64,000 bases of DNA from Nocardioides sp. GY 10113 (lineage in GTDB: Bacteria > Actinomycetota > Actinomycetes > Propionibacteriales > Nocardioidaceae). The first letter of the stretch is position 1, and each line of letters begins with the position of its first letter. Below are positions 5,069 through 56,983 of the stretch, in pieces. Made by a program: the position numbers and the translations under genes. Where the stretch lies: the NCBI RefSeq assembly GCF_004919105.1, contig NZ_STGK01000002.1, positions 248,001 through 312,000 on the forward strand. Reading direction: 5' to 3'. Below the pieces are notes generated by a model. The model had not been told where the DNA came from. It saw nothing but the letters and a program-made list of their open reading frames with translations, and did no database searches.

Positions 5069-6016
5069 TCAGAGCAGGGTGTCGGCCGCGCCGTACGGGT
5101 CCAGACGCCCCGCGGCCACGTCGGCGGCCAGCGCATCGAGGCGATGGCCCTCACCGAGGTCGCCCCAACGCGCACGCATCGCGGTCAGCGCGATCGCCTC
5201 GACCTCGTCGCGCGCCCGGCGGGTACGACGCCGCGCGAGCGTGCCGTCCTCGGCAGACCGAGCGTGGTGCTCGTCGAGCGCGTCGACCACCGCGGCCACG
5301 CCGTCGCCCTGGGTGGCCACCAGGCTCAGCACCGGCGGGCGCCAGGCACCGGGCAGCCGCTCGGCGTGGGAGAGCATCGAGCGCAGGTCGCGCCGTACCT
5401 TGTCGGCGCCGTCGCGGTCGGCCTTGTTGACCACGTAGACGTCGCCGATCTCCAGCAGGCCGGCCTTCGCGGCCTGGATGCCGTCGCCCATGCCGGGGGC
5501 CAGCAGCACTGCGGTGGAGTCGGCCAGGCGGGCGATCTCCACCTCGCTCTGGCCGACGCCCACGGTCTCGACCAGGATCACGTCGAACCCGGCGGCATCG
5601 AGCACCCGCAGTGCCTGCGGGGTGGCGACGGTGAGTCCGCCGAGGTGGCCTCGCGCGGCCGTCGACCGGATGAACACGCCCGGGTCGGTGGCGTGCTCGG
5701 ACATCCGGATCCGGTCCCCCAGCAGCGCCCCGCCGGAGAACGGAGAGGACGGGTCGACGGCGAGCACGCCGACACGGCGGCCGCGCCGACGGTACTCGCC
5801 GATCAGCGCGCTGGTCGTGGTCGACTTGCCCACGCCCGGCGCGCCGGTCAGGCCGACCACCTGGGCGCCGCCGACATGCGGCGCCAGCGCGGCCATCGCC
5901 TCCCGCAGCAGCGGGGAGGCGTCCTCGACCAGCGAGATGAGACGACCGATCGCCCGAGCCTGCCCCTGGCAGGCCCGGGCGACCAGGTCGTCTATCGCGT
6001 CAGTTCGACGGGACAC
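5069..6016 (-). CDS. meaB: methylmalonyl-CoA mutase-associated GTPase MeaB
   Basis: A 315-residue G3E P-loop GTPase that acts as a chaperone for B12-dependent acyl-CoA mutases, protecting and reloading the cobalamin cofactor. The P-loop is GAPGVGKST at 58-66, followed by the family signature [22 protein letters not shown] and ETVGVGQSE. The [11 protein letters not shown] segment matches the base-recognition NKxD motif. Its start overlaps the end of the thiolase gene by 17 bp, so the two are translationally coupled. A client mutase, MeaA, is encoded 15 kb away in this window. The same epimerase-thiolase-meaB order is seen in other actinomycetes. Confidence 0.95.
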
Positions 6017-7199
6017 GCACGATCAGGGCGTCGCCCTGGCCACCGCCGCCGCAGAGCGCGGCAGCACCGGTGCCGCCACCGCGGCGCTTGAGCTCGAGCG
6101 CGAGGTGCAGCACGACCCGGGCGCCGGACATGCCGACCGGGTGGCCGAGCGCGATCGCGCCGCCGTTGACGTTGATCTTCTCCTCGGGGATGCCCAGCGC
6201 GCGGGCGGACTCGATGCCGACCGCGGCGAACGCCTCGTTGAACTCGACCAGGTCGAGGTCGGCGGGCGTGATGCCCTCCTTGGCGCAGGCCTTCGCGGTG
6301 GCGTTGGCCGGCTGCAGCTGAAGGCTGCTGTCCGGGCCGGCGACCATGCCGTGGGCGCCGATCTCGGCCAGCCACTCCAGCCCCAGCTCCTCGGCCTTCG
6401 CCTTGCTCATCACGACCACGGCGCAGGCGCCGTCGGAGATCTGGGAGGCCGAGCCGGCGGTGATGGTGCCGGACTTGGAGAACGCCGGGGGGAGCTTGCC
6501 CAGCGACTCGGCGGTGGTGTCGCCGCGCACGCCCTCGTCGATGGAGACCACGATCGGCTCGCCCCGGCGCTGCGGGATGGTGACCGGCACGACCTCCTCG
6601 TCGAAGATGCCGTTCTTCCAGGCCGCGGCCGCCTTCTGGTGCGAGGCGGCGGCGAACTCGTCCTGCTCCTCGCGGCTGAGCTGGGTGCCCTCGGCGTTGA
6701 TCTGCTCGGTCAGGCCGCCCATCGCCTGCTGGGTCGCCTGGTCGTAGAGCGCGTCGTAGGCCATCGAGTCGACGAGCTTCACGTCGCCGAACTTGAAGCC
6801 CTCGCGGGACTTCGGCAGGAGGTGCGGGGCGTTGGTCATCGACTCCATACCGCCGGCGACGATGATCTCGGCCTCGCCGGCGCGGATCATCTGGTCGGCG
6901 GTGGCGATCGAGTTGAGACCCGAGAGGCACACCTTGTTGATGGTGATCGAGGGCAGGCTCAGCGGCAGGCCCGCGGCGATGCCAGCGGTCCGGGCCGGGT
7001 TCTGGCCGGCGCCGGCGAGGATGACCTGGCCCATGATCAGGTAGTCGACCTGGTCGCCGCTGACCCCAGCCTTCTCCAGCGCACCCTTGATCGCTACGCC
7101 GCCGAGCTCCGCGGCCGACAGGGACTTCAGACCGCCGAGCAGGCGGCCGATCGGGGTACGCGCGCCGGCGACGATGACGCTCGGGTTGGACTGGGACAT
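6000..7199 (-). CDS. acetyl-CoA C-acetyltransferase (thiolase)
   Basis: A 399-residue thiolase that condenses or cleaves acetoacetyl-CoA. The nucleophilic cysteine is Cys91 in [11 protein letters not shown]; the residue after it is Leu where Gly or Ala is common. The C-terminal catalytic His and Cys lie in [16 protein letters not shown] and [11 protein letters not shown]. The ATG at 7199 has GGAGG 6 nt upstream. It is divergent from the epimerase gene and overlaps meaB. In context it likely supplies acetoacetyl-CoA to the ethylmalonyl-CoA route, although a role in fatty-acid or polyketide degradation is equally possible. The mycobacterial counterpart by position is fadA4. Confidence 0.92.
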
Positions 7200-7365
7200 G
7201 GTGCCTCCGTGAGTTCGTGGACATCTGCGGGGCCGCGTGGGTGGCCCACGCGGGCGGCCCGTCCTCCTCGGCAGACTACTCGCGGGTAGCCAGACCGGTG
7301 GAGGGCGTCCACGCCCTAACCGCGTGAGGCGCTCATCACACTCCCCTACCTGCAGAATAGTGCGC

Positions 7366-7815
7366 ATGAGTCTGACCCAGGATCTGCCCGAGCAGCTGTT
7401 CACCGCCATCGACCACGTCGGCATCGCCGTGCCCGACCTGGACGCGGCGATCGCGTTCTACCGCGACACCTTCGGCATGGTCGCCGTGCACGAGGAGACC
7501 AACGAGGAGCAGGGTGTCCGCGAGGCGATGGTCGCCGTCGGCGACTCCGGCTCGTGCATCCAGCTGCTGGCGCCGCTGAACGAGTCCTCCACGATCGCGA
7601 AGTTCCTCGACAAGTCCGGCCCCGGCGTGCAGCAGATGGCCTACCGGGTCACCGACCTCGACCACGTCTCCTCGGTCCTGCGCGAGCGCGGCGTGCGACT
7701 GCTCTACCCCGAGCCCAAGCGGGGCACCGCCAACAGCCGGATCAACTTCGTGCACCCCAAGGACGCCGGTGGCGTGCTGGTGGAGCTCGTCGAGCCCTCG
7801 GCCGACCCGCACTGA
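7366..7815 (+). CDS. mce: methylmalonyl-CoA epimerase
   Basis: A 149-residue vicinal-oxygen-chelate protein with two beta-alpha-beta-beta-beta units. Metal ligands of the family are recognisable: His in [13 protein letters not shown] near 16, the His/Glu region around QQMAYRV, and Glu in [10 protein letters not shown] near the C-terminus. It interconverts (2R)- and (2S)-methylmalonyl-CoA between the carboxylase or Ccr/Ecm route and the mutase. I start at the ATG at 7366, because an upstream extension reads into the divergent promoter region and is not conserved-looking. No Shine-Dalgarno is evident. It diverges from the thiolase-meaB pair with 166 bp between. Confidence 0.93.
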
Positions 7816-7873
7816 CCCGACCGCCGAACAGGTAGAAAGCCCCGGCGCTGACGACCCACTCGCGTCGTGGGTG

Positions 7874-8722
7874 TCACGCCCAGCGGAAGCGGACCTCGTC
7901 GCCGGGGCGGGCCTGGGCCAGCCGGTCGGTGTCGGCGTCGACGACCACCCCGATCACCGGGTAGCCCCCGGTGACCGGGTGGTCGGGCCCGAAGACCACC
8001 GGCCGCCCGTCGGGCGGGATCTGGATGGCGCCCCGCAGCGCACCCTCGCTGGGCAGCTCGCCGCGACCGGCCGCCTCGAACGCGGGACCGGCCAGGCGCA
8101 CGCCGACGCGGTCGCTCTCTGGCGCCACCCGCCACGCGGAGCGCACCAGCGCATCGGCGTCGCGCACCCAGTCCGCCCGCGGCCCCGGCACCACCCGCAG
8201 CACCGGCACTGCGTCGTACGACGCCGGCGGGACGGCGTCGACCAGCATCGTGCCGCCCGGTGCCGGTCCCACGGCGAGCCGGTCCCCGGCCGCGAGCGGC
8301 GCGGGTCCCAGCGCGGACAGGGTGTCCCGCGACGCCGAGCCCAGCACGGGCGCGACCCGGAACCCGCCGCGCACCGCCAGGTAGCTGCGCAGCCCCGACC
8401 CGGGCGTCCCCAGTCGCAGCCGCTGGCCGGGGCGGAGCGCGAGCACCGCCCCGGTCGGCTCCCGCCGGCCGTCGCGGTCGACCTCCACCGGCGCGCCCGT
8501 CACGCTCACCCAGCAGGTGCCCGTGGCCTCGACCTCCAGCCCGCCGAGCACCACCTCCAGCGCCGCGGCCCCGGCGTCGTTGCCGAGCAGCCGGTTCGCC
8601 AGCCCGTACGACGACCGGTCGGCCGCGCCGCTGCGCCCGACGCCGACGCCGGCCAGGCCGACCCGGCCGGCGTCGGTGACCAGGCAGGGCCCACCGACCG
8701 CGCGCACCACCAGCGCACTCAC
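7874..8722 (-). CDS. pxpC: 5-oxoprolinase subunit C (biotin-dependent carboxyltransferase-like, AHS2)
   Basis: A 282-residue allophanate hydrolase subunit 2 family protein. It opens [20 protein letters not shown] and carries the family segments [21 protein letters not shown] and [17 protein letters not shown]. With PxpB it forms the ATP-dependent 5-oxoprolinase that converts 5-oxoproline to glutamate. The GTG start overlaps the pxpB stop as GTGA (4 bp). It is the last gene of the pxpA-pxpB-pxpC operon. An upstream in-frame extension reads through the 12-bp repeat of pxpB and was rejected. Confidence 0.9.
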
Positions 8723-9468
8723 CGGCCCGCCTCCGACCTGACCGAACGACCGCCCGAACGACCGCCCGAACGACCGCCCGAACGACCGCCCGAACGACCC
8801 ACGTCGACGAAGCGCACCACGGCCCCGGGGACCAGCAGCGCGGGCGGCTCCCGGTCGACGTCCCACAGCGCCAGGTCAGTGCGACCGATCAGCTGCCAGC
8901 CACCGGGCGACGAGCGCGGGTACACGCCGCTGAACTCGCCGGCCAGCCCCACCGAGCCGGCCGGCACCGCGGTGCGCGGCGTCCCCCGACGCGGCACGCG
9001 GAGCCGGGCGTCCCCGCCGACGAGGTAGGCGAACCCGGGCGCGAAGCCGCCGAAGGCCACCCGCCAGGCGGTGCCGGTGTGTGCGGCGACCACCGCGTCC
9101 GGGTCGAGACCGGTCAGCCCCGCCACCTCGGCGAGGTCCGCGCCGTCGTACACCACCGGGATCTCGACCTCGGTCCGCGCCGCCGCGACCGCTGCCCCAC
9201 CAGGAGGCGGCGCGTCGGGGCCGGGCGCCCGATCCGCGCCCGCGACCACCTCCGACACCAGGGCCCGCAGCCGCTCGAGGTCGACGCCGGGCCGGGCGAC
9301 GAGCAGCACCGTCCGGGCACCCGGCACCACGTCCTCGACGAGCTCGTCGAGGACGCCCGGTCCCCCGCCCGCCGAGCGCAGGGCATCGATGCAGGCGAGC
9401 ACGGCAGCCGTGTCGGCGACCTCGAGCAGCAGCGCCCGGTCGCCGTAGGGAAGGACGCGCGCGCTCAT
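8719..9468 (-). CDS. pxpB: 5-oxoprolinase subunit B (AHS1, KipI-like) with a repetitive tail
   Basis: A 249-residue allophanate hydrolase subunit 1 protein beginning [17 protein letters not shown]. The conserved core is [46 protein letters not shown] and [15 protein letters not shown]. It partners PxpC in 5-oxoproline hydrolysis. The last ~20 residues are a GRSG repeat encoded by a 12-bp tandem array at 8743-8800, absent from the family core. The start overlaps the pxpA stop as ATGA and the end overlaps pxpC, so all three are translationally coupled. Confidence 0.9.
8743..8800. repeat. 12-bp tandem repeat in the 3' end of pxpB
   Basis: CGAACGACCGCC is repeated 4.8 times without error between 8743 and 8800. 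On the minus strand it encodes a Gly-Arg-Ser-Gly tail of PxpB. Because the unit is a multiple of three, copy-number change would keep the frame and lengthen or shorten only the tail. Confidence 0.9.
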
Positions 9469-49333: not shown

Positions 49334-49406
49334 GCCTCCGTAGCTCAGGGGATAGAGCACTGGTTTCCGGTACCAGGTGTCGCAGGTTCGAATCCTGCCG
49401 GAGGCG
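49334..49406 (+). tRNA. tRNA-Arg (anticodon CCG)
   Basis: A 73-nt cloverleaf. The acceptor arm GCCTCCG pairs with CGGAGGC, the D-arm GCTC..GAGC encloses AGGGGATA, the anticodon arm CTGGT/ACCAG encloses TTCCGGT (anticodon CCG), and the T-arm contains GGTTCGAATCC. The discriminator is G and CCA is not encoded. A TAGTGT hexamer at 49299-49304 is a candidate -10 about 30 bp upstream. Confidence 0.97.
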
Positions 49407-49431
49407 CATCGGGAGGTCGTACGACCTCGCC

Positions 49432-50125: not shown

Positions 50126-50779
50126 TTGGATCGGGCGTACTGGGAGAACCACGCCGCGGCGTTCGCGGTGCTCGGCCGGCTGCACCGCGAGCCGCCGTCG
50201 GACGAGGCGCTGGCCTCGATCACCGGCCTGCTCGACGAGTGGCCGCTTCCCGGCACGCCGGGTGCGGCCGCCGGGCTCGACCGGCTGCGGCGCTCCCGCG
50301 ACGCCGGCGAGGACGCCGCCGCGGTCCGCGCCGACCACGACCGCCTGTACGGCGTCTCGGCCGTCGCCCTGGTCGCACCGTACGAGTCCGTGCACCGCGG
50401 GCAGGACCGCCTGGTCTTCGACACCGCCACGCTCCAGGTGCGCGAGTCCTACCGGGCGATCGGGCTCCAGGCGCCGCGGCTGAACCTCGAGCCGGACGAC
50501 CACATCGGGCTGGAGTTCGACTTCGTGGCGCAGGCCGTCCTGCGGGCGATCGGATCCCCCGACGACGCGGTCGCCGAGGCGGCGCTCGAGCCGGCGCGGG
50601 CGTTCCTCGTCGAGCACCTGCTGCCGTGGGCGCCGGCGATGCTCGTCCGGGCCGCGACCACGGCCCGGACCGACTTCATGGCCGGCATAGCGCTGCTCTC
50701 CTCGGGAGCGTTGGACTCCGCCCGCGCCGCCTTCGGGCTGCCCGCGGAGGACGCCACCGGGAGCGCCGCGGACCGCTGA
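50126..50779 (+). CDS. TorD/DmsD-family redox-enzyme chaperone (first copy)
   Basis: A 217-residue all-helical protein. The TorD signature is recognisable: HDRLYGVSAVALVAPYESVHRG, then DDHIGLEFDFVAQAV and FLVEHLLPWAPAML. TorD-family chaperones hold molybdoenzyme apoproteins, guard the Tat signal and help cofactor insertion; the client should be the DmsA-like protein encoded next. The TTG at 50126 has GGGAGGAC upstream. It opens the respiratory cluster, 113 bp before the catalytic gene. Confidence 0.8.
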   Translation: MDRAYWENHAAAFAVLGRLHREPPSDEALASITGLLDEWPLPGTPGAAAGLDRLRRSRDAGEDAAAVRADHDRLYGVSAVALVAPYESVHRGQDRLVFDTATLQVRESYRAIGLQAPRLNLEPDDHIGLEFDFVAQAVLRAIGSPDDAVAEAALEPARAFLVEHLLPWAPAMLVRAATTARTDFMAGIALLSSGALDSARAAFGLPAEDATGSAADR

Positions 50780-50892: not shown

Positions 50893-53469
50893 ATGTCGAT
50901 CAACCACACCGATGCCCCGGACGATGCCGCGAGCGGGACCGACCGGCGTACCTTCCTGAAGTGGTCCGCAGCCGTCGGCGGCACCGCGGCCCTGGTGCCG
51001 GTGGTCACCGAGCTCGGGATGCCCGGGTCGGGCCCGGCCGCGGCCGCGGCGGGCTCGGCCGAGGAGGCGACCTTCGTCTGGTCGGCGTGCACCGTGAACT
51101 GCGGCTCGCGCTGTCCCGTGCGGCTGCAGGTGGAGGACGGCACCATCGTCCGGGTGCTGCCGGACAACACCGGCACCAACGAGATCGGCAGCCAGCAGGT
51201 CCGCGCGTGCGTGCGCGGCCGCTCCATCCGGCACCGGATCTACAACCCGGACCGGCTGAAGAAGCCGATGAAGCGCAAGCCGGGCACGAAGCGCGGCGAC
51301 GAGGAGTGGGAGACGATCTCCTGGGACCAGGCGCTCGACGAGATCGCCGAGAAGATGAAGGACATCAAGGCCCGGTTCGGCAACGAGGCGTTCTACATCA
51401 ACTACGGCACCGGGACCCTCGGCTCGGTGATGGCGAAGTCCTGGCCGCCCGACAAGAGCCCGTTCGCCCGGCTGATGAACACCTGGGGCGGCTACCTGGA
51501 CCACTACGCGGACTACTCGACGACCGAGATCACGGCCGCCTACCCCTACTTCTACGGCACCTGGGTCGACGGGAACACCTTCGACGACGTCAAGAACTCC
51601 GAGCTCCAGGTGATGTTCGGCAACAACCCGCTGGAGACCCGGATGTCCGGCGGCGGCCAGCTTCTGGTCTCCCAGCAGACCAAGGTCGAGCACGGCGTGA
51701 AGACGATCATCGTCGACCCCCGCTACTCCGAGACCGCGGCGCTGCTGGGCGACGAGTGGGTCCCGCTGCGGCCCGGCACCGACGCAGCCCTGGTCGCCGG
51801 CCTGCTCCACGTGATGGTCACCGAGGACCTCCACGACCAGGAGTTCCTCGACAAGTACTGCGTCGGCTTCGACGAGAAGACCCTGCCCGAGGGCGCGCCC
51901 AAGAACTCCTCCTACCGCGCCTATCTCGAGGGCAAGGGTCCCGACACCACCGAGAAGACGCCGGAGTGGGCGGCCGACATCACCGGCGTCCCGGCGAGCC
52001 GGATCCGCCAGCTCGCCCGGGAGATCGCCGGCGCCAAGCCGTGCGCGATCACCCAGGGCTGGGGTCCGCAGCGCCACGCCAACGGCGAGAACTCGGCGCG
52101 GGCGATCTTCCTGCTGGCCGCCGCCACCGGCAACGTCGGCGTACCGGGCGGCGGGACGGGGGCCCGCGAGGGAGCCCAGTACCTCTCCATCGCCGAGCCG
52201 TTCGGCAGCGAGCTGATCAATCCCTCGGAGAAGATCATCTCGGTCTTCGGCTGGCTCGACGCCATCCAGTACGGCGAGCAGCTGGACACGTTCAACGCCG
52301 GCGTGCTGAGGAAGCCCGGCCCCGGGATCCGCGACGGTGAGGTGCCGGTCGACGAGCAGGGCAACGCGACCAACATCCGCCTCGAGGTGCCGATCAAGAT
52401 GGTCTGGCAGTACTCGGGCAACTCGATCGTCAACCAGACCGGCGACAACAACGCCTCGATCAAGATCCTCCAGGACGACACGATGTGCGAGCTGATCGTC
52501 GTCTGCGACATCCAGTACACGGTCTCCGCGCGGTACGCCGACTACATCCTGCCCGGGACCTCCACGGCCGAGGAGGACGACATCCACCCCGGCGAGAACG
52601 GCGGCCCGATGGCGTACGGGATCATCTCCAGCCAGGCGATCGAGCCGCTCTACGAGTGCCGGACCGTGTTCGACATCTGCACCGACCTGGCCGACCGCCT
52701 CGGCACCAAGGAGAAGTTCACCGGCGGCAAGACCCGCGAGGAGTGGCTGCGCGAGGCGATCAAGCAGAGCCGCGAGATCGATCCGGAGCTCCCCGACTAC
52801 GACGAGTGGAAGGCGATGGGCATCTACCGTCGCGACATGGGTCCGGCGGTCTCCCTGGCCGACTTCCGCAAGAACCCGAAGGCGAACCCCCTGCCCACCC
52901 CGTCGGGGAAGATCGAGATCTACTCCGACCGACTGGCGGCGATGGCCGAGAAGTGGCAGTTCGGCGTCTTCCACGAGGAGAAGGCGGGCGACCGCCTGGT
53001 CCCCCTCCCCGAGTACGTCGAGACCTGGGAGGGTCCGCTGGAGACACGCGCCTCCGAGGAGTACCCGTTCCAGGTGATCGGCCACCACTTCAAGGGCCGC
53101 ACGCACTCCTCCTACGGCAACGTCGACTGGCTCAAGGCGGCGCACCACCAGACCGCGTGGATCAACACCCTCGATGCCGCGGACCGCGGGATCGACAACG
53201 GCGACCAGGTCTTCGTCTACAACGACCGGGGCACGATCAAGCTCGAGGCCCGCGTCACCGAACGGGTGATGCCGGGCGTGATCTCGGTGCCGCAGGGTGC
53301 CTGGTTCGACCCCAAGGGCGCCGACGAGGTGGAGCCACCGGACGGCGCCAACCCGGACCATCCGGTCGACGTCGGCGGCAACACCAACACGCTGACGTCC
53401 CTGCACCCCTCGGCGCTGGCCAAGGGCAACGCGGCGCACACCGTCGCCGCGAACGTCGTCAAGGCATGA
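50893..53469 (+). CDS. DmsA-like molybdopterin oxidoreductase, Tat-exported
   Basis: An 858-residue molybdo-bis-PGD enzyme of the DMSO reductase family. The Tat signal has twin Arg18-Arg19 (DRRTFLKW) and a hydrophobic Ala/Val stretch to ~53. Cys66, Cys70, Cys74 and Cys106 bind one [4Fe-4S] cluster. Ser209 in ADYSTTEI aligns with the DmsA Mo-ligand region, and FGNNPLETRMSGGG, QGWGPQRHANGE and DYILPGTSTAEEDD are DmsA-like. It would reduce an S- or N-oxide or a similar acceptor outside the membrane. GGAGG precedes the ATG. The substrate is not certain. Confidence 0.88.
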   Translation: MSINHTDAPDDAASGTDRRTFLKWSAAVGGTAALVPVVTELGMPGSGPAAAAAGSAEEATFVWSACTVNCGSRCPVRLQVEDGTIVRVLPDNTGTNEIGSQQVRACVRGRSIRHRIYNPDRLKKPMKRKPGTKRGDEEWETISWDQALDEIAEKMKDIKARFGNEAFYINYGTGTLGSVMAKSWPPDKSPFARLMNTWGGYLDHYADYSTTEITAAYPYFYGTWVDGNTFDDVKNSELQVMFGNNPLETRMSGGGQLLVSQQTKVEHGVKTIIVDPRYSETAALLGDEWVPLRPGTDAALVAGLLHVMVTEDLHDQEFLDKYCVGFDEKTLPEGAPKNSSYRAYLEGKGPDTTEKTPEWAADITGVPASRIRQLAREIAGAKPCAITQGWGPQRHANGENSARAIFLLAAATGNVGVPGGGTGAREGAQYLSIAEPFGSELINPSEKIISVFGWLDAIQYGEQLDTFNAGVLRKPGPGIRDGEVPVDEQGNATNIRLEVPIKMVWQYSGNSIVNQTGDNNASIKILQDDTMCELIVVCDIQYTVSARYADYILPGTSTAEEDDIHPGENGGPMAYGIISSQAIEPLYECRTVFDICTDLADRLGTKEKFTGGKTREEWLREAIKQSREIDPELPDYDEWKAMGIYRRDMGPAVSLADFRKNPKANPLPTPSGKIEIYSDRLAAMAEKWQFGVFHEEKAGDRLVPLPEYVETWEGPLETRASEEYPFQVIGHHFKGRTHSSYGNVDWLKAAHHQTAWINTLDAADRGIDNGDQVFVYNDRGTIKLEARVTERVMPGVISVPQGAWFDPKGADEVEPPDGANPDHPVDVGGNTNTLTSLHPSALAKGNAAHTVAANVVKA

Positions 53470-53501: not shown

Positions 53502-54218
53502 ATGACCGAGACACCGACCCCCTCCCCGTCGCCGACGAGCCCCAACGAGTCCGTCAGCGGGACCGGGACCATCACCAGGACCGACAACCAGACCGAGGCG
53601 GGCGCCGACTACGGCTTCTACTTCGACCAGTCCCTGTGCACCGGCTGCAAGGCCTGCGGCATCGCGTGCAACGACAAGCACGACCTTCCCGAAGGCGTCA
53701 TGTGGCGACGCGTGGTCGAGTACTCCGGCGGCTCCTGGATGCTCTCCGACGACAACACCGTCACCCAGGACGTCTTCACGTACTACACCTCGATCGCCTG
53801 CAACCACTGCGAGGACCCGATCTGCGTCGAGGTGTGCCCCACCACGGCGATGACCAAGCGCGAGGACGGGACGGTGTACGTCGACGACGACAAGTGCGTC
53901 GGCTGCCGGTACTGCGAGTGGGCGTGCCCCTACAGCGCCCCGCAGTTCAACGCCGAGATCGGGCACATGACCAAGTGCGACCTGTGCTTCGACTACCGCT
54001 CCGAGGGGCTGACCCCGGCCTGCGTCGCCGCCTGCCCGTCCCGGGCGCTCGACTGGGGACCGATCGCCGACCTCCGGGATCAGTACGGCGACCAGAGTGG
54101 TCTGGCGCCGTTGCCCGACCCGAGCCTCACCGATCCACACCTGGTGATCACGCCGCACCGCGACTCCGAGCCGTGGGACCACGCGTCGGGCCACATCGCC
54201 AACCCCGACGAGATCTGA
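53502..54218 (+). CDS. DmsB-like iron-sulfur electron-transfer subunit
   Basis: A 238-residue ferredoxin with four [4Fe-4S] clusters: Cys46/49/52/56, Cys100/103/108/112, Cys132/135/138/142 and Cys159/162/174/178. All sixteen cysteines are present. It passes electrons from the membrane anchor to the DmsA-like subunit. The first 30 residues are a Ser/Thr/Pro-rich extension with no signal peptide, so it presumably travels with the Tat-exported partner. It lies 32 bp after the catalytic gene. Confidence 0.92.
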   Translation: MTETPTPSPSPTSPNESVSGTGTITRTDNQTEAGADYGFYFDQSLCTGCKACGIACNDKHDLPEGVMWRRVVEYSGGSWMLSDDNTVTQDVFTYYTSIACNHCEDPICVEVCPTTAMTKREDGTVYVDDDKCVGCRYCEWACPYSAPQFNAEIGHMTKCDLCFDYRSEGLTPACVAACPSRALDWGPIADLRDQYGDQSGLAPLPDPSLTDPHLVITPHRDSEPWDHASGHIANPDEI

Positions 54219-54230
54219 GGAGGAGCTCAG

Positions 54231-55319
54231 ATGAGCCTGCACGACCTCCCGATGGTGCTGTTCACGGTCTTCACACAGATGGCCGTCGGCACCTTCCTCG
54301 CGCTCGGCGTGGTGTTCCTGGCCACCCTCGGCAAGCCGAAGCCCGACCGGGTGATCGACCCGGTGCTCTACGCGATCGGCCCGGCCCTGGTCTTCGGCCT
54401 GGCGGTCTCGACCCTGCACATGCACGACATCACCCACACCCTCAACGTGATCCGCCACTGGAACTCCTCGTGGCTGACCAGGGAGATCCTCTTCGGCGTC
54501 GCCTTCGCCGGCGTGGGGTTCCTGTTCGCGCTGCTGGCCTGGTTCCAGATCGGCAGCCGGACGATGCGGCAGGTGGTGGCGTTCGTCGCCGCGCTGCTCG
54601 GGATCGGGCTGGTCTGGGCTCAGTCGATGGTCTACTACTCGCTGCGCACCGTGCCCGCCTGGCGCACGTGGGAGGTGCCCTTCTTCTTCTTCGCCACCAC
54701 GGTGCTCCTCGGGGCGCTGGCGGTGGGCGCGGCGATCATGGTGACCACCGTCGTCCGCGCCTGGCATGCATCCCGGGCCGCCGACGCGGACGGCACGGGC
54801 GGCGCTGCCCCGGAGGCCGGGCCAGCGACCGGCGCCGACCCGGGGACCGAGACCAGTGCCACCGGCTCCGGCGGCGGCGCGGACGCCGGCGGCACCAAGG
54901 GCGGGATCGCGGTCCAGACCCGCGCCCGCGTCGCCGAGATCAACGCCCCCACCACCGAGGAGGAGTGGCAGCTGACCGTACGCATCCTCCGGGCGATCGC
55001 GGCCGTCGGCGCCGCGACGGCCGTGGCGATCCTCGTGGTCTACCCGGTCTACCTGGCCGACCTGGGCCGGGGCGACGCGGCGGCGCAGGCCACGCTCGAT
55101 GAGATGACCGACGGCCCGATGCTGTGGATCCGCCTGGTCCTGCTCGGCCTCACCGCGGTCGTCCTCGGCGTCTTCGTCTACCGGATGGCCGAGACCACGC
55201 CCCTGGCGCAGGCCCGCTCCCTGGCCCTGCTGGTCCTGCTCTGCTTCGCGATGGCGCTGGCCAGCGAGCTGCTGGGCCGCACGCTGCACTACACGACCCA
55301 GATCCGGGTCGGGATCTGA
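54231..55319 (+). CDS. DmsC-like membrane anchor subunit
   Basis: A 362-residue membrane protein with eight predicted helices (about 7-31, 44-65, 88-108, 113-135, 150-175, 248-273, 297-317, 329-348), as in DmsC, which oxidises menaquinol. Family features include LHDLPMVLFTVFTQMAVG, STLHMHDITHTLNVIRHWNSSWLTRE and ASELLGRTLHY. Residues ~180-235 are an unusual Ala/Gly/Thr-rich linker between helices 5 and 6. It starts 12 bp after the DmsB gene with GAGGAG upstream. Confidence 0.9.
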   Translation: MSLHDLPMVLFTVFTQMAVGTFLALGVVFLATLGKPKPDRVIDPVLYAIGPALVFGLAVSTLHMHDITHTLNVIRHWNSSWLTREILFGVAFAGVGFLFALLAWFQIGSRTMRQVVAFVAALLGIGLVWAQSMVYYSLRTVPAWRTWEVPFFFFATTVLLGALAVGAAIMVTTVVRAWHASRAADADGTGGAAPEAGPATGADPGTETSATGSGGGADAGGTKGGIAVQTRARVAEINAPTTEEEWQLTVRILRAIAAVGAATAVAILVVYPVYLADLGRGDAAAQATLDEMTDGPMLWIRLVLLGLTAVVLGVFVYRMAETTPLAQARSLALLVLLCFAMALASELLGRTLHYTTQIRVGI

Positions 55320-55324
55320 CGCGA

Positions 55325-55948
55325 GTGGATACCGGCGCCGGCGTCGCGGCCGCGGGCTTCGCGGTCGCGCGACTCCTGATCACGCCGCCCGACGACGCGT
55401 TCCTGGGTCGGCTCGCCGACCCGACCGGCCGGCAGTCCTGGCCGATCCGCGACCCGGCCACGATGCTCGGCCTGCGTACCCTCGCCGAGCCGTTCGGGCT
55501 GGCCGAGGTCCGCGCCGACTGGGCCCGGCTCTTCGAGCCCGGGGCCGACCCGGTCCCGCTCCGCGAGTCCGAGTGGGTCGACCTCCCCGGCGGCGCGGAC
55601 CAGCTCGTGACCGCCCTCGAGCAGCGCTACGCGGCCGCCGGCGTGCGACGCGCGCACGTCGGCGCGTGCCCGGCCGATCACATCTCCCGGGAGCTGATGT
55701 ACCTCGCGCACCTCGCCGCGCGGCTCGAGCGAGACCCCCGGCCAGTCGGGCAGCGGGGCGGTCCGCGGCCGGAGGACGAGATCCTCGACTTCGCCACCAC
55801 CCACCTCGACCGGTTCGCCGGCGACGCCCTGGAGGCGATCCGGGCGCGCGCCACCACACCGCCGATGCGGGCGCTCCCCGACCTCGCGGTCGGCGTGCTG
55901 GACTCGATGGCGGCGCTCGTCGCGACCTCCGCCGCCGGGGGCCGGTGA
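55325..55948 (+). CDS. TorD-family-like chaperone (second copy)
   Basis: A 207-residue helical protein. The segments RADWARLFEPGADPVPLRESEW, CPADHISRELMYLAHLAARLE and LDFATTHLDRFAGDALEAI follow the TorD pattern (entry loop, PDHI helix, HL-W/F helix). Its sequence differs clearly from the copy at 50126, so it is not a recent duplication. One may serve the DmsA-like subunit and the other the adaptor or iron-sulfur subunit; that is inference. The GTG at 55325 is 5 bp after the anchor gene. Confidence 0.68.
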   Translation: MDTGAGVAAAGFAVARLLITPPDDAFLGRLADPTGRQSWPIRDPATMLGLRTLAEPFGLAEVRADWARLFEPGADPVPLRESEWVDLPGGADQLVTALEQRYAAAGVRRAHVGACPADHISRELMYLAHLAARLERDPRPVGQRGGPRPEDEILDFATTHLDRFAGDALEAIRARATTPPMRALPDLAVGVLDSMAALVATSAAGGR

Positions 55949-55951
55949 GGC

Positions 55952-56983
55952 GTGCCCGCCGACCAGACCGCCGACCAGACCGCCGACCAGCCCTCCGAGC
56001 AGACCGACCGGGGCCGGGAGCTGGCCCGGTGGGTCCTGGCCACCGGCGCGCCGGAGGCGGCGGTCCTGGCCTGCGTCCACGCCGCCGACACGCGCGTCCC
56101 GGTCGGAGCGGTCTGCGTGTTGCTGCCGGGGTGCCTGGACTCCGTGGACGTCGGCCTGCCGGCGCAGCTGCTGGCCTGCGGCGTCCGCGAGGTGCGGGTG
56201 ACACCGTGCCCGCAGCACCCGGCCCGCGCGGCCGCGCGCGCAGCCCAGTGGGCGAGGGTCCTCGACGGCGTGACCCACGGGTCCACCGGGCGGCCGCGAC
56301 GGGCGCGGCGCAGCGGGCCGACGTTCAGCCTCGCCGACGGGCGAGCCAGCGATCGGCCGACGGTCTCGCGCAGGCGGCTGCTCGGACTGGGACGGGCCGC
56401 GCAGCCGCCGTTCGACCTCACGCTGGACGAGGCCGGGCGGGGCCTCGCCGCCCTCGCAGTGCTGCGCCGCGAGGGCAGGGCACGACCACTGCCGGACGCG
56501 ACACCCCCAGCGCCCGTCCCGGCGCCGCCGGTCCCCGAGCGAGCCGGCGGGGCCGGGTCTGCCGCTCCGGGCGAGCCGGTGGCGGAGCGGGAGTCGGCCG
56601 TCGCGGCGCGGCTGGTCGCGACCGGCTGCATCGCGTGCGGGGTCTGCGTGCAGGCGTGCCCGCACGACGCGCTCCGGCTGACCGACCTGGAGGGATCCTC
56701 CGTGCTGCGCCACCGTCCCGCGGACTGCCGCGGCGAGCAGGAGTGTGTCCGGCTGTGCCCGGAGAGCGCCCTGGCCGACGCCGGCGGGCTCTCGCTGCTC
56801 GACCTCGCTGATGCCTCGGGGGTCGTGCTGGCCCGGGTCGAGACCAACGCCTGCACCCGCTGCGGCGCCCGGCACCCGGCCGACGAGGGCCCGCTGTGCT
56901 CGCCCTGCGCCTACCGCCGGGCGAACCCGTTCGGTTCCGTGGTCCGCACCGGTCGACGCTCGGGCGGGCAGTCACCCGGCTGA
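55952..56983 (+). CDS. ferredoxin-like adaptor with [4Fe-4S] motif and zinc-ribbon, unrecognised architecture
   Basis: A 343-residue protein. Residues 1-18 are an ADQT repeat. Residues 22-110 (VCVLLPGCLDSVDVGLPAQL, CGVREVRVTPCP) resemble the cysteine-containing delta domain of viologen-reducing hydrogenases. After a basic Pro/Ala linker, Cys226/229/232/236 form a standard [4Fe-4S] site. A second site is degenerate (Cys259, Cys265, Cys269), and Cys301/304/316/319 make a zinc-ribbon-like motif. No signal peptide is seen. Position at the end of the DmsABC-like cluster suggests an electron-transfer or maturation role. I do not recognise the combined family. Confidence 0.7.
   Translation: MPADQTADQTADQPSEQTDRGRELARWVLATGAPEAAVLACVHAADTRVPVGAVCVLLPGCLDSVDVGLPAQLLACGVREVRVTPCPQHPARAAARAAQWARVLDGVTHGSTGRPRRARRSGPTFSLADGRASDRPTVSRRRLLGLGRAAQPPFDLTLDEAGRGLAALAVLRREGRARPLPDATPPAPVPAPPVPERAGGAGSAAPGEPVAERESAVAARLVATGCIACGVCVQACPHDALRLTDLEGSSVLRHRPADCRGEQECVRLCPESALADAGGLSLLDLADASGVVLARVETNACTRCGARHPADEGPLCSPCAYRRANPFGSVVRTGRRSGGQSPG

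What the first reader, a model, noticed from the sequence alone, without database searches (positions are those of the whole stretch)
55952..56983. Unrecognised fusion: hydrogenase-delta-like domain, one good and one broken [4Fe-4S] site, and a zinc ribbon
The order of domains does not match a family I know. The second cluster has only three cysteines with odd spacing (Cys259, 265, 269), and a Cys4 ribbon follows. It may be a new electron-transfer or assembly protein for molybdoenzymes.
Basis: partly seen in the sequence, partly recalled or inferred. Interest (0 to 1): 0.55.

Follow-up and report, generated by a model that had tools for sequence, protein, structure and literature searches.

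The report
Iron-sulphur helper for DMSO reductase
This gene makes an iron-sulphur protein, related to the little-studied arsenite-oxidase companion ArxB2, that probably helps a bacterium build a molybdenum respiratory enzyme before it is sent out of the cell; it is real and conserved and its make-up is unusual, but it is not a new kind of system.

Summary
ORF 55952-56983 is intact and follows dmsABC and a TorD-type chaperone gene. It has a FlpD/MvhD-like N-terminal domain (modest evidence), a conserved Arg-Arg, one full CxxCxxCxxxCP motif, a second motif with Cys259/265/269, and a Cys4 site. The second motif is not oddly spaced: it is the canonical motif with its second Cys replaced by Glu262; 19 of 37 family rows have a non-Cys there (14 Glu, 2 Asp, 3 other). 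Six other rows lack that Cys in the first motif; none lacks both. No curated family covers the protein, but its profile aligns colinearly over 255 columns with ArxB2-like proteins of arsenite-oxidase and other molybdoenzyme operons (hhalign 99.8%); its branch lacks their N-terminal ferredoxin pair. In its order 16 of 391 genomes carry it at E<=1e-12, all among the 23 with dmsC. In four Trueperella/Arcanobacterium genomes it lies beside tat genes, away from dmsABC. Best explanation: a cytoplasmic, NapF-like ferredoxin that helps load Fe-S clusters into DmsA/DmsB before Tat export (inferred, about 0.6). A published remark that arxB2 appears arx-specific does not hold for the wider family.

The parts
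55952..56983 (+). FeS protein gene (343 aa): FlpD-like domain, Arg-Arg motif, two ferredoxin motifs, Cys4 site
56009..56281 (+). N-terminal FlpD/MvhD-like domain, residues about 20-110; conserved Cys41, Cys61, Cys86
   Evidence: Cys at these places in 30, 31 and 30 of 37 rows
56366..56389 (+). internal SRRRLLGL motif, residues 139-146; Arg140 and Arg141 in 37 of 37 rows
56627..56659 (+). intact cluster motif 1, C226-x2-C229-x2-C232-x3-C236
56726..56758 (+). cluster motif 2, C259-x2-E262-x2-C265-x3-C269 (Glu in place of the second Cys)
56852..56908 (+). Cys4 metal site C301/C304/C316/C319 (zinc ribbon or rubredoxin-like); the model matches HycF over 218-332
50893..53469 (+). dmsA, catalytic molybdoenzyme subunit with Tat signal
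   Evidence: TIGR02166 1011.9 bits, cut-off 777.7; PF10518 24.2 bits, cut-off 22.7
53502..54218 (+). dmsB, four-cluster subunit with 16 Cys
   Evidence: TIGR02951 252 bits, cut-off 214.1
54231..55319 (+). dmsC, membrane anchor
   Evidence: PF04976 81.2 bits, cut-off 22.3
55319..55948 (+). TorD/DmsD-type chaperone gene 2 (start codon not resolved)
   Evidence: PF02613 45 bits, cut-off 22.2
50126..50779 (+). TorD/DmsD-type chaperone gene 1, upstream of dmsA
   Evidence: PF02613 83.8 bits, cut-off 22.2

Best explanation
A cytoplasmic maturation ferredoxin for the DMSO-reductase-type enzyme of the same operon. It probably works like NapF does for NapA: it binds the unfinished DmsA/DmsB in the cytoplasm, supplies Fe-S clusters or the electrons needed to form them, and hands over to the TorD-type chaperone for molybdenum-cofactor insertion and Tat export. 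The intact [4Fe-4S] site would be the stable electron relay; the Glu-substituted site would hold an easily converted [3Fe-4S]/[4Fe-4S] cluster suited to transfer or sensing; the FlpD-like domain and the Cys4 site would be docking or redox connectors. Shown here: conserved anatomy, kinship with ArxB2-like proteins, linkage to dms and tat genes, no obvious signal or membrane segment by sequence and hydropathy. Inferred: the cluster types, the partner and every mechanistic step.
For: (1) Linkage: 15 of 15 fetched loci of order members with the gene also hold dmsA, and 13 of 15 a TorD gene. In the order 16 of 391 genomes have it at E<=1e-12, all 16 among the 23 with DmsC (Fisher p 2e-23, related genomes not being independent); of the other 7, three have a weaker or broken copy near dmsC. 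(2) In 4 of 4 Trueperella/Arcanobacterium genomes it lies beside tatA, tatC and a tatB-like gene (TorD seen in 2 of 4), while DmsC lies on another contig (3) or about 580 kb away (1). (3) All 10 genomes I chose for a copy count have one copy at E<=1e-8; 4 of them have two or more DmsC, as expected of a shared helper rather than a subunit. (4) DmsA has a Tat signal; the FeS protein shows none by eye and no membrane segment by hydropathy (no signal-peptide program was run), so it should act inside. (5) DmsB already has 16 Cys for four clusters. (6) Precedent: PMC10609526 (passages) reports that NapF was required for in vitro Fe-S reconstitution of R. sphaeroides NapA, read as a role before Tat export, and that DmsA needs Fe-S before Moco.
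Against: No experiment on this protein was found; PMC6549141 calls the role of arxB2 unclear and found it missing in four bacterial arx genomes (passages), and only arxB2, not arxABC, rose with arsenite in Thioalkalivibrio jannaschii (PMC6620896, passages). The precedent is mixed: NapF is not always present and matters only marginally in E. coli and Wolinella (PMC10609526); deleting HydN and YsaA lowers FDH-H activity but not H2 production (PMC6004506, abstract). FlpD/MvhD domains are known as electron connectors, which also fits an electron-transfer role. 4 of 23 DmsC-bearing genomes show only generic ferredoxin matches, so the gene is not needed everywhere. NapF membership is not shown: TIGR00402 gives 24.3 bits against a cut-off of 102.2. 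Operon linkage alone also fits a hitch-hiking subunit.
Confidence: 0.6

Rival explanations
1. An electron-transfer partner: either a subunit that leaves the cell with DmsAB, or a cytoplasmic connector that passes electrons between a soluble donor and the reductase, with the FlpD-like domain as the plug, as MvhD connects Fdh or Mvh with Hdr.
For: MvhD is an electron connector, and its homologue ElpC binds a conserved [2Fe-2S] cluster (PMC12350162, passages); top VIA rows are MvhD-type chains; the ferredoxin half plus Cys4 site matches HycF, a relay subunit (Z 10.4); PMC6683785 lists ArxB2 among the structural components (passages).
Against: DmsA has a Tat signal and the operon already has DmsB (16 Cys) and DmsC; the gene is unlinked from dmsC but beside tat genes in 4 of 4 Trueperella/Arcanobacterium genomes; one copy with two or more DmsC in 4 of 10 chosen genomes.
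Confidence: 0.22
2. A redox sensor or export checkpoint: cluster or Cys4-metal state controls binding to the reductase or to TorD/Tat, as proposed for the HycF metal ion near FdhF.
For: HycF has a Cys-quartet metal site next to FdhF, proposed to regulate its docking (PMC9474812, passages); the model match to HycF spans that region; tat linkage; a 7Fe ferredoxin can carry a reactive [3Fe-4S] cluster (Desulfovibrio africanus Fd III, PMC13111528, passages).
Against: The spacing differs (CxxC-x11-CxxC here, against CxxC-x34-CPxC in HycF); no direct evidence for sensing.
Confidence: 0.12
3. A decaying remnant of a larger polyferredoxin (lost N-terminal ferredoxin pair, one site breaking).
For: Actinobacterial rows lack the N-terminal ferredoxin pair of the distant relatives; seven rows besides the L026 fragment lack at least one of Cys41, 61, 86; G199 has a copy with stop codons; L026 has a shifted N-terminus.
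Against: Open frame with GC3 0.92; the other motif Cys and the ribbon Cys in 36-37 of 37 rows; both second-Cys positions lost in 0 of 37 rows.
Confidence: 0.03

Closest known systems
ArxB2 of arx (anaerobic arsenite oxidase) operons
   Same: Colinear FlpD-like domain, Arg-Arg, two ferredoxin motifs and Cys4 site (hhalign 99.8%, 255 columns, against nine ArxB2-like proteins); sits with a molybdoenzyme, further subunits and a TorD gene; two of the nine (L086, L087) neighbour molybdoenzymes with the GRGWG motif that PMC6549141 gives for ArxA.
   Different: The ArxB2-like proteins carry an additional N-terminal ferredoxin pair; the enzyme here is DmsA-type, not ArxA; here motif 2, not motif 1, lacks the second Cys.
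NapF (E. coli and relatives)
   Same: Cytoplasmic ferredoxin-type helper of a Tat-exported molybdoenzyme (PMC10609526); hhalign with E. coli NapF 81.8% over residues 223-307 (ferredoxin motifs included); an SRR near the start of E. coli NapF.
   Different: NapF has four cluster motifs and no FlpD-like domain; the hit here is far below the NapF cut-off (24.3 against 102.2 bits).
HycF of formate hydrogenlyase
   Same: Ferredoxin pair followed by a Cys-quartet metal site; best fold match (7z0t_F, Z 10.4, rmsd 4.8, 105 aligned).
   Different: Complex-I-type relay subunit with two [4Fe-4S] clusters; different Cys4 spacing; no FlpD-like domain in its 180 residues (size; domain content recalled).
FlpD/MvhD (hydrogenase delta)
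   Same: N-terminal domain fold by the top four VIA rows; a Cys after the second strand lines up with one of FlpD in the profile comparison.
   Different: No Pfam FlpD hit in the window protein; 13-16% identity in the structural alignments; Z only 5.6-6.0.

Membership tests
ArxB2-like proteins | Colinear FlpD-like domain, Arg-Arg, ferredoxin pair, Cys4 | tested here: met
   hhalign A2 against A4: 99.8%, 255 columns; N-terminal part alone 89.9% over 52 columns
ArxB2-like proteins | Additional N-terminal ferredoxin pair | tested here: not met
   Present in the nine distant rows (partly degenerate in L088), absent in the window
ArxB2 proper | Encoded with ArxA (GRGWG) and arxXSR | tested here: not met
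   The neighbour is DmsA-type: TIGR02166 above cut-off. arxXSR is often but not always present in arx clusters (PMC6549141) and was not searched for here
NapF | Score over TIGR00402 cut-off; four cluster motifs | tested here: not met
   24.3 against 102.2 bits; two motifs only
FlpD/MvhD (PF02662) | Sequence match over the curated cut-off | tested here: not met
   No hit at E<=1 in the window protein; L064 19.4 bits, cut-off 22.3
FlpD/MvhD (PF02662) | Same fold | tested here: inconclusive
   VIA Z 5.6-6.0, four top rows all MvhD-type, next row (COMT) 5.4; none among the 50 rows Foldseek showed
HycF | Score over NCBIfam cut-off | tested here: not met
   NF009053 23.1 against 204 bits
HycF | Ferredoxin pair plus Cys quartet | tested here: met
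dmsABC operon | DmsA, DmsB, DmsC over curated cut-offs | tested here: met
Fe-S protein with [4Fe-4S] plus [3Fe-4S] or Glu-ligated cluster | Cluster content | not testable with these tools
   Needs EPR/Moessbauer and metal analysis

The most novel reading that the evidence does not exclude
A previously unrecognised, widespread class of molybdoenzyme maturation factor: the conserved internal Arg-Arg (SRRxLLGL-like) segment imitates a Tat leader and is bound by TorD/DmsD or TatBC, so that the protein, once its acid-substituted labile cluster has been given to DmsA/DmsB, releases the chaperone from the real leader and licenses export. ArxB2, whose role is unknown, would do the same for arsenite oxidase.
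Probability: 0.1. Interest if true: 0.72.

Novelty: new variant of a known kind. Interest (0 to 1): 0.42.

Why it matters
[quoted passage not shown] Here the same architecture is found with DMSO-reductase operons in Actinobacteria, with other TorD-linked molybdoenzymes in Proteobacteria and Nitrospirota, beside a DmsC-like gene in a Chloroflexota contig, and next to tat genes in some Actinomycetaceae. If the reading is right, this turns an arsenic-specific curiosity into a general accessory protein with a testable role in loading and exporting molybdoenzymes, and gives a natural series of Cys-to-Glu/Asp/His/Ser changes at one cluster position.

Tried and rejected
The single-protein scan of genome contigs found nothing. 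The A2 scan returned an error because no stretch was conserved enough; a closer subset, A3 (7 of the 15 rows), was used instead and found 36 loci. L003 was not pursued; L004 reads as HdrA-like (name from recall). Weak copies L089-L091 are not in the 37-row table. L026 has a shifted N-terminus and entered as a fragment; start codons of all relatives are my choice.

Plasmid tblastn with the window protein gave no match; with two distant relatives it gave the ArxB2-like rows. Sequence searches against solved structures returned chiefly ferredoxin-type proteins. Foldseek with the N-terminal domain alone gave no match at E<=0.001 and no MvhD among the 50 rows shown; VIA-align put MvhD first but at weak Z. 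I first thought the NapF profile began at the Arg-Arg motif; the coordinates (L062 243-354, RR at 207-208) do not support that and I dropped it. Rejected: an internal Tat signal for export of a truncated form, because no strongly hydrophobic stretch follows the Arg-Arg. The tree kept the two second-Cys columns, so its counts lean slightly towards grouping by that trait, and it holds very long branches (L087, L088, L084, L064).

Full report
Observation. The ORF 55952-56983 is real and intact. It follows dmsA, dmsB, dmsC and a TorD-type gene on the same strand; a second TorD-type gene precedes dmsA. Over curated cut-offs Pfam finds only generic ferredoxin models in it and NCBIfam, among the 25 rows shown, nothing.

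Relatives. Within the window's genome there is one copy at E<=0.001. Of 58 same-genus genomes none has it, so the gene is patchy and may have been acquired. In the order, 16 of 391 genomes match at E<=1e-12 and all 16 are among the 23 with a DmsC gene; none of the 368 genomes without DmsC matches at that level. Of the 7 DmsC genomes without a strong match, three (G134, G196, G199) have a weak or broken copy near dmsC and four show only generic ferredoxin cross-matches. Of 15 order-member loci fetched with flanks, 15 hold dmsA and 13 a TorD gene; the two without are L032, a 3.6-kb contig, and L034. A scan of named genomes added Trueperella, Arcanobacterium, Arachnia, Tessaracoccus, Gleimia, Flaviflexus, Cellulomonas timonensis and Pengzhenrongella, and distant relatives in Anaerolinea, Nitrospirae, a gammaproteobacterium and Filomicrobium.

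The wider family. Plasmid records gave five more distant relatives, each with a TorD gene in the fetched stretch; four of five have an annotated molybdopterin oxidoreductase there, and the fifth an NrfD anchor with an unlisted gap. Two of them (Sulfuricella pSCD, Cereibacter pORIO3) lie in arx-type operons: PhnD-like protein, histidine kinase and regulator, then the FeS gene, then a molybdoenzyme with the GRGWG motif, which PMC6549141 describes as an ArxA mark; that paper also speaks of ArxA of S. denitrificans skB26 (passages). It names the extra ferredoxin gene arxB2, says it appears arx-specific (no homologues described for AIO or ARR) and that its role is unclear. The identity of L086 and L087 with arxB2 is my inference from gene order. 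The actinobacterial profile aligns with the nine distant proteins over 255 columns (99.8%). Because ferredoxin motifs could drive this, the N-terminal part was compared alone: 89.9%, E 1.7e-6 for a single comparison, 52 columns. The distant rows have an additional N-terminal ferredoxin pair which the window's branch lacks.

The N-terminal domain. AlphaFold gives a confident small alpha/beta domain (mean pLDDT 84.9). Foldseek shows no clear match. VIA-align ranks four MvhD-type chains first (Z 5.6-6.0; names checked), just above methyltransferases (5.4), so the match is suggestive only. A distant relative has a sub-threshold FlpD hit, and the distant group matches FlpD at 91.9%, the mixed group 22.1% and the actinobacterial group 2.5%. 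The FlpD assignment is therefore transitive. MvhD is an electron connector, and its homologue ElpC binds a conserved [2Fe-2S] cluster (PMC12350162, passages).

The 'broken' site. In 37 rows motif 2 lacks only its second Cys in 19 rows (14 Glu, 2 Asp, 1 His, 1 Asn, 1 Ser); motif 1 lacks its second Cys in six rows (Ser, Ala, Gln, Asp, His, and L087, which has lost more of the motif); twelve rows have both; none lacks both second Cys. On a tree of the C-terminal half the 19 rows form one side of a branch (support 94/87, just under the program's mark for strong support; 93% of 200 bootstrap trees), while the six need at least two changes. So the Glu-type site looks like an old, kept trait of one actinobacterial branch, and loss of the same position happened separately in the other motif. 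From general knowledge of ferredoxins (recalled), an acid at this place is a known way to make a [3Fe-4S]/[4Fe-4S] interconverting site; the D. africanus Fd III example, a 7Fe ferredoxin with a stable and a reactive cluster, is described in PMC13111528 (passages), though the passages do not state the ligand.

The C-terminal half. The model's best fold match is HycF (7z0t_F, Z 10.4, rmsd 4.8, 105 residues, model 218-332), whose Cys quartet holds a metal ion near FdhF (PMC9474812, passages). The Cys4 spacing differs.

Function. Four facts point to assembly. First, linkage to TorD and dmsABC. Second, in 4 of 4 Trueperella/Arcanobacterium genomes the gene is beside tatA, tatC and a tatB-like gene, with TorD seen in 2 of 4, and not near dmsABC. 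TatC and TatA pass the Pfam cut-off in the two loci scanned (L047, L048), the tatB-like protein does not (none, and 19.4 against 21 bits); L049 and L050 rest on tblastn with the L047 proteins. Third, one copy in each of 10 genomes that I chose, of which 4 have two or more DmsC. Fourth, no obvious signal or membrane segment (highest 19-residue hydropathy 1.83, against 2.42 in DmsC), while DmsA has a Tat signal and DmsB 16 Cys. NapF is the working precedent: cytoplasmic, four cluster motifs, required for in vitro Fe-S reconstitution of R. sphaeroides NapA; and DmsA needs Fe-S before Moco. The same review says that NapF is not always present and has marginal effects in E. coli and Wolinella (PMC10609526, passages). 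HydN and YsaA are ferredoxin-like proteins needed for full dye-linked FDH-H activity, though not for H2 production (PMC6004506, abstract). Hypothetical ferredoxins in TorD-linked fdh operons were noted before (PMC4464133, passages). I therefore favour a NapF-like maturation role at about 0.6, with electron transfer as the main rival.

Literature check. Searches for ArxB2, for DMSO-reductase ferredoxins in Actinobacteria and for Tat-linked versions listed no paper that, from title, start of abstract or the passages read, describes this actinobacterial protein or links ArxB2 to dms operons. The lists were capped (15 of 20, 10 of 105, 6 of 6, 10 of 91, 6 of 6 papers) and only open-licence papers were searched. 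PMC4177395 reports DMSO reductase in some Actinomycetaceae, without such a protein in the passages seen.

Verdict. A conserved, TorD-linked FeS protein of the ArxB2-like group in a truncated, Glu-site form: a new variant of a known but uncharacterised kind.

Noticed in passing
window 50126-50779 and 55319-55948: Two different TorD/DmsD-type chaperone genes bracket one dmsABC operon; L028 shows a similar pair.
   Followed up: partly
window 49334-49407: A tRNA-Arg (ccg) lies just upstream of the operon, and none of 58 same-genus genomes has the FeS gene, so the operon may be an acquired insertion near a tRNA; ends were not mapped.
   Followed up: no
L047-L050, around 5600-8850: tatA, tatC and a tatB-like gene beside the FeS gene (and TorD in L047, L049) in Trueperella and Arcanobacterium.
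   Followed up: partly
G199:C2:671624-672372: A copy with in-frame stops beside dmsC, apparently broken.
   Followed up: no
L034, L058, L060, L061, L063: Two dmsA genes (whole or cut by the locus end) close together with one FeS gene in the locus; two dmsB genes in L034 and L058.
   Followed up: partly
window 55952-56010: The first 18 or so residues are a TADQ-type repeat not seen in the aligned homologues; the GTG start may be too early.
   Followed up: no
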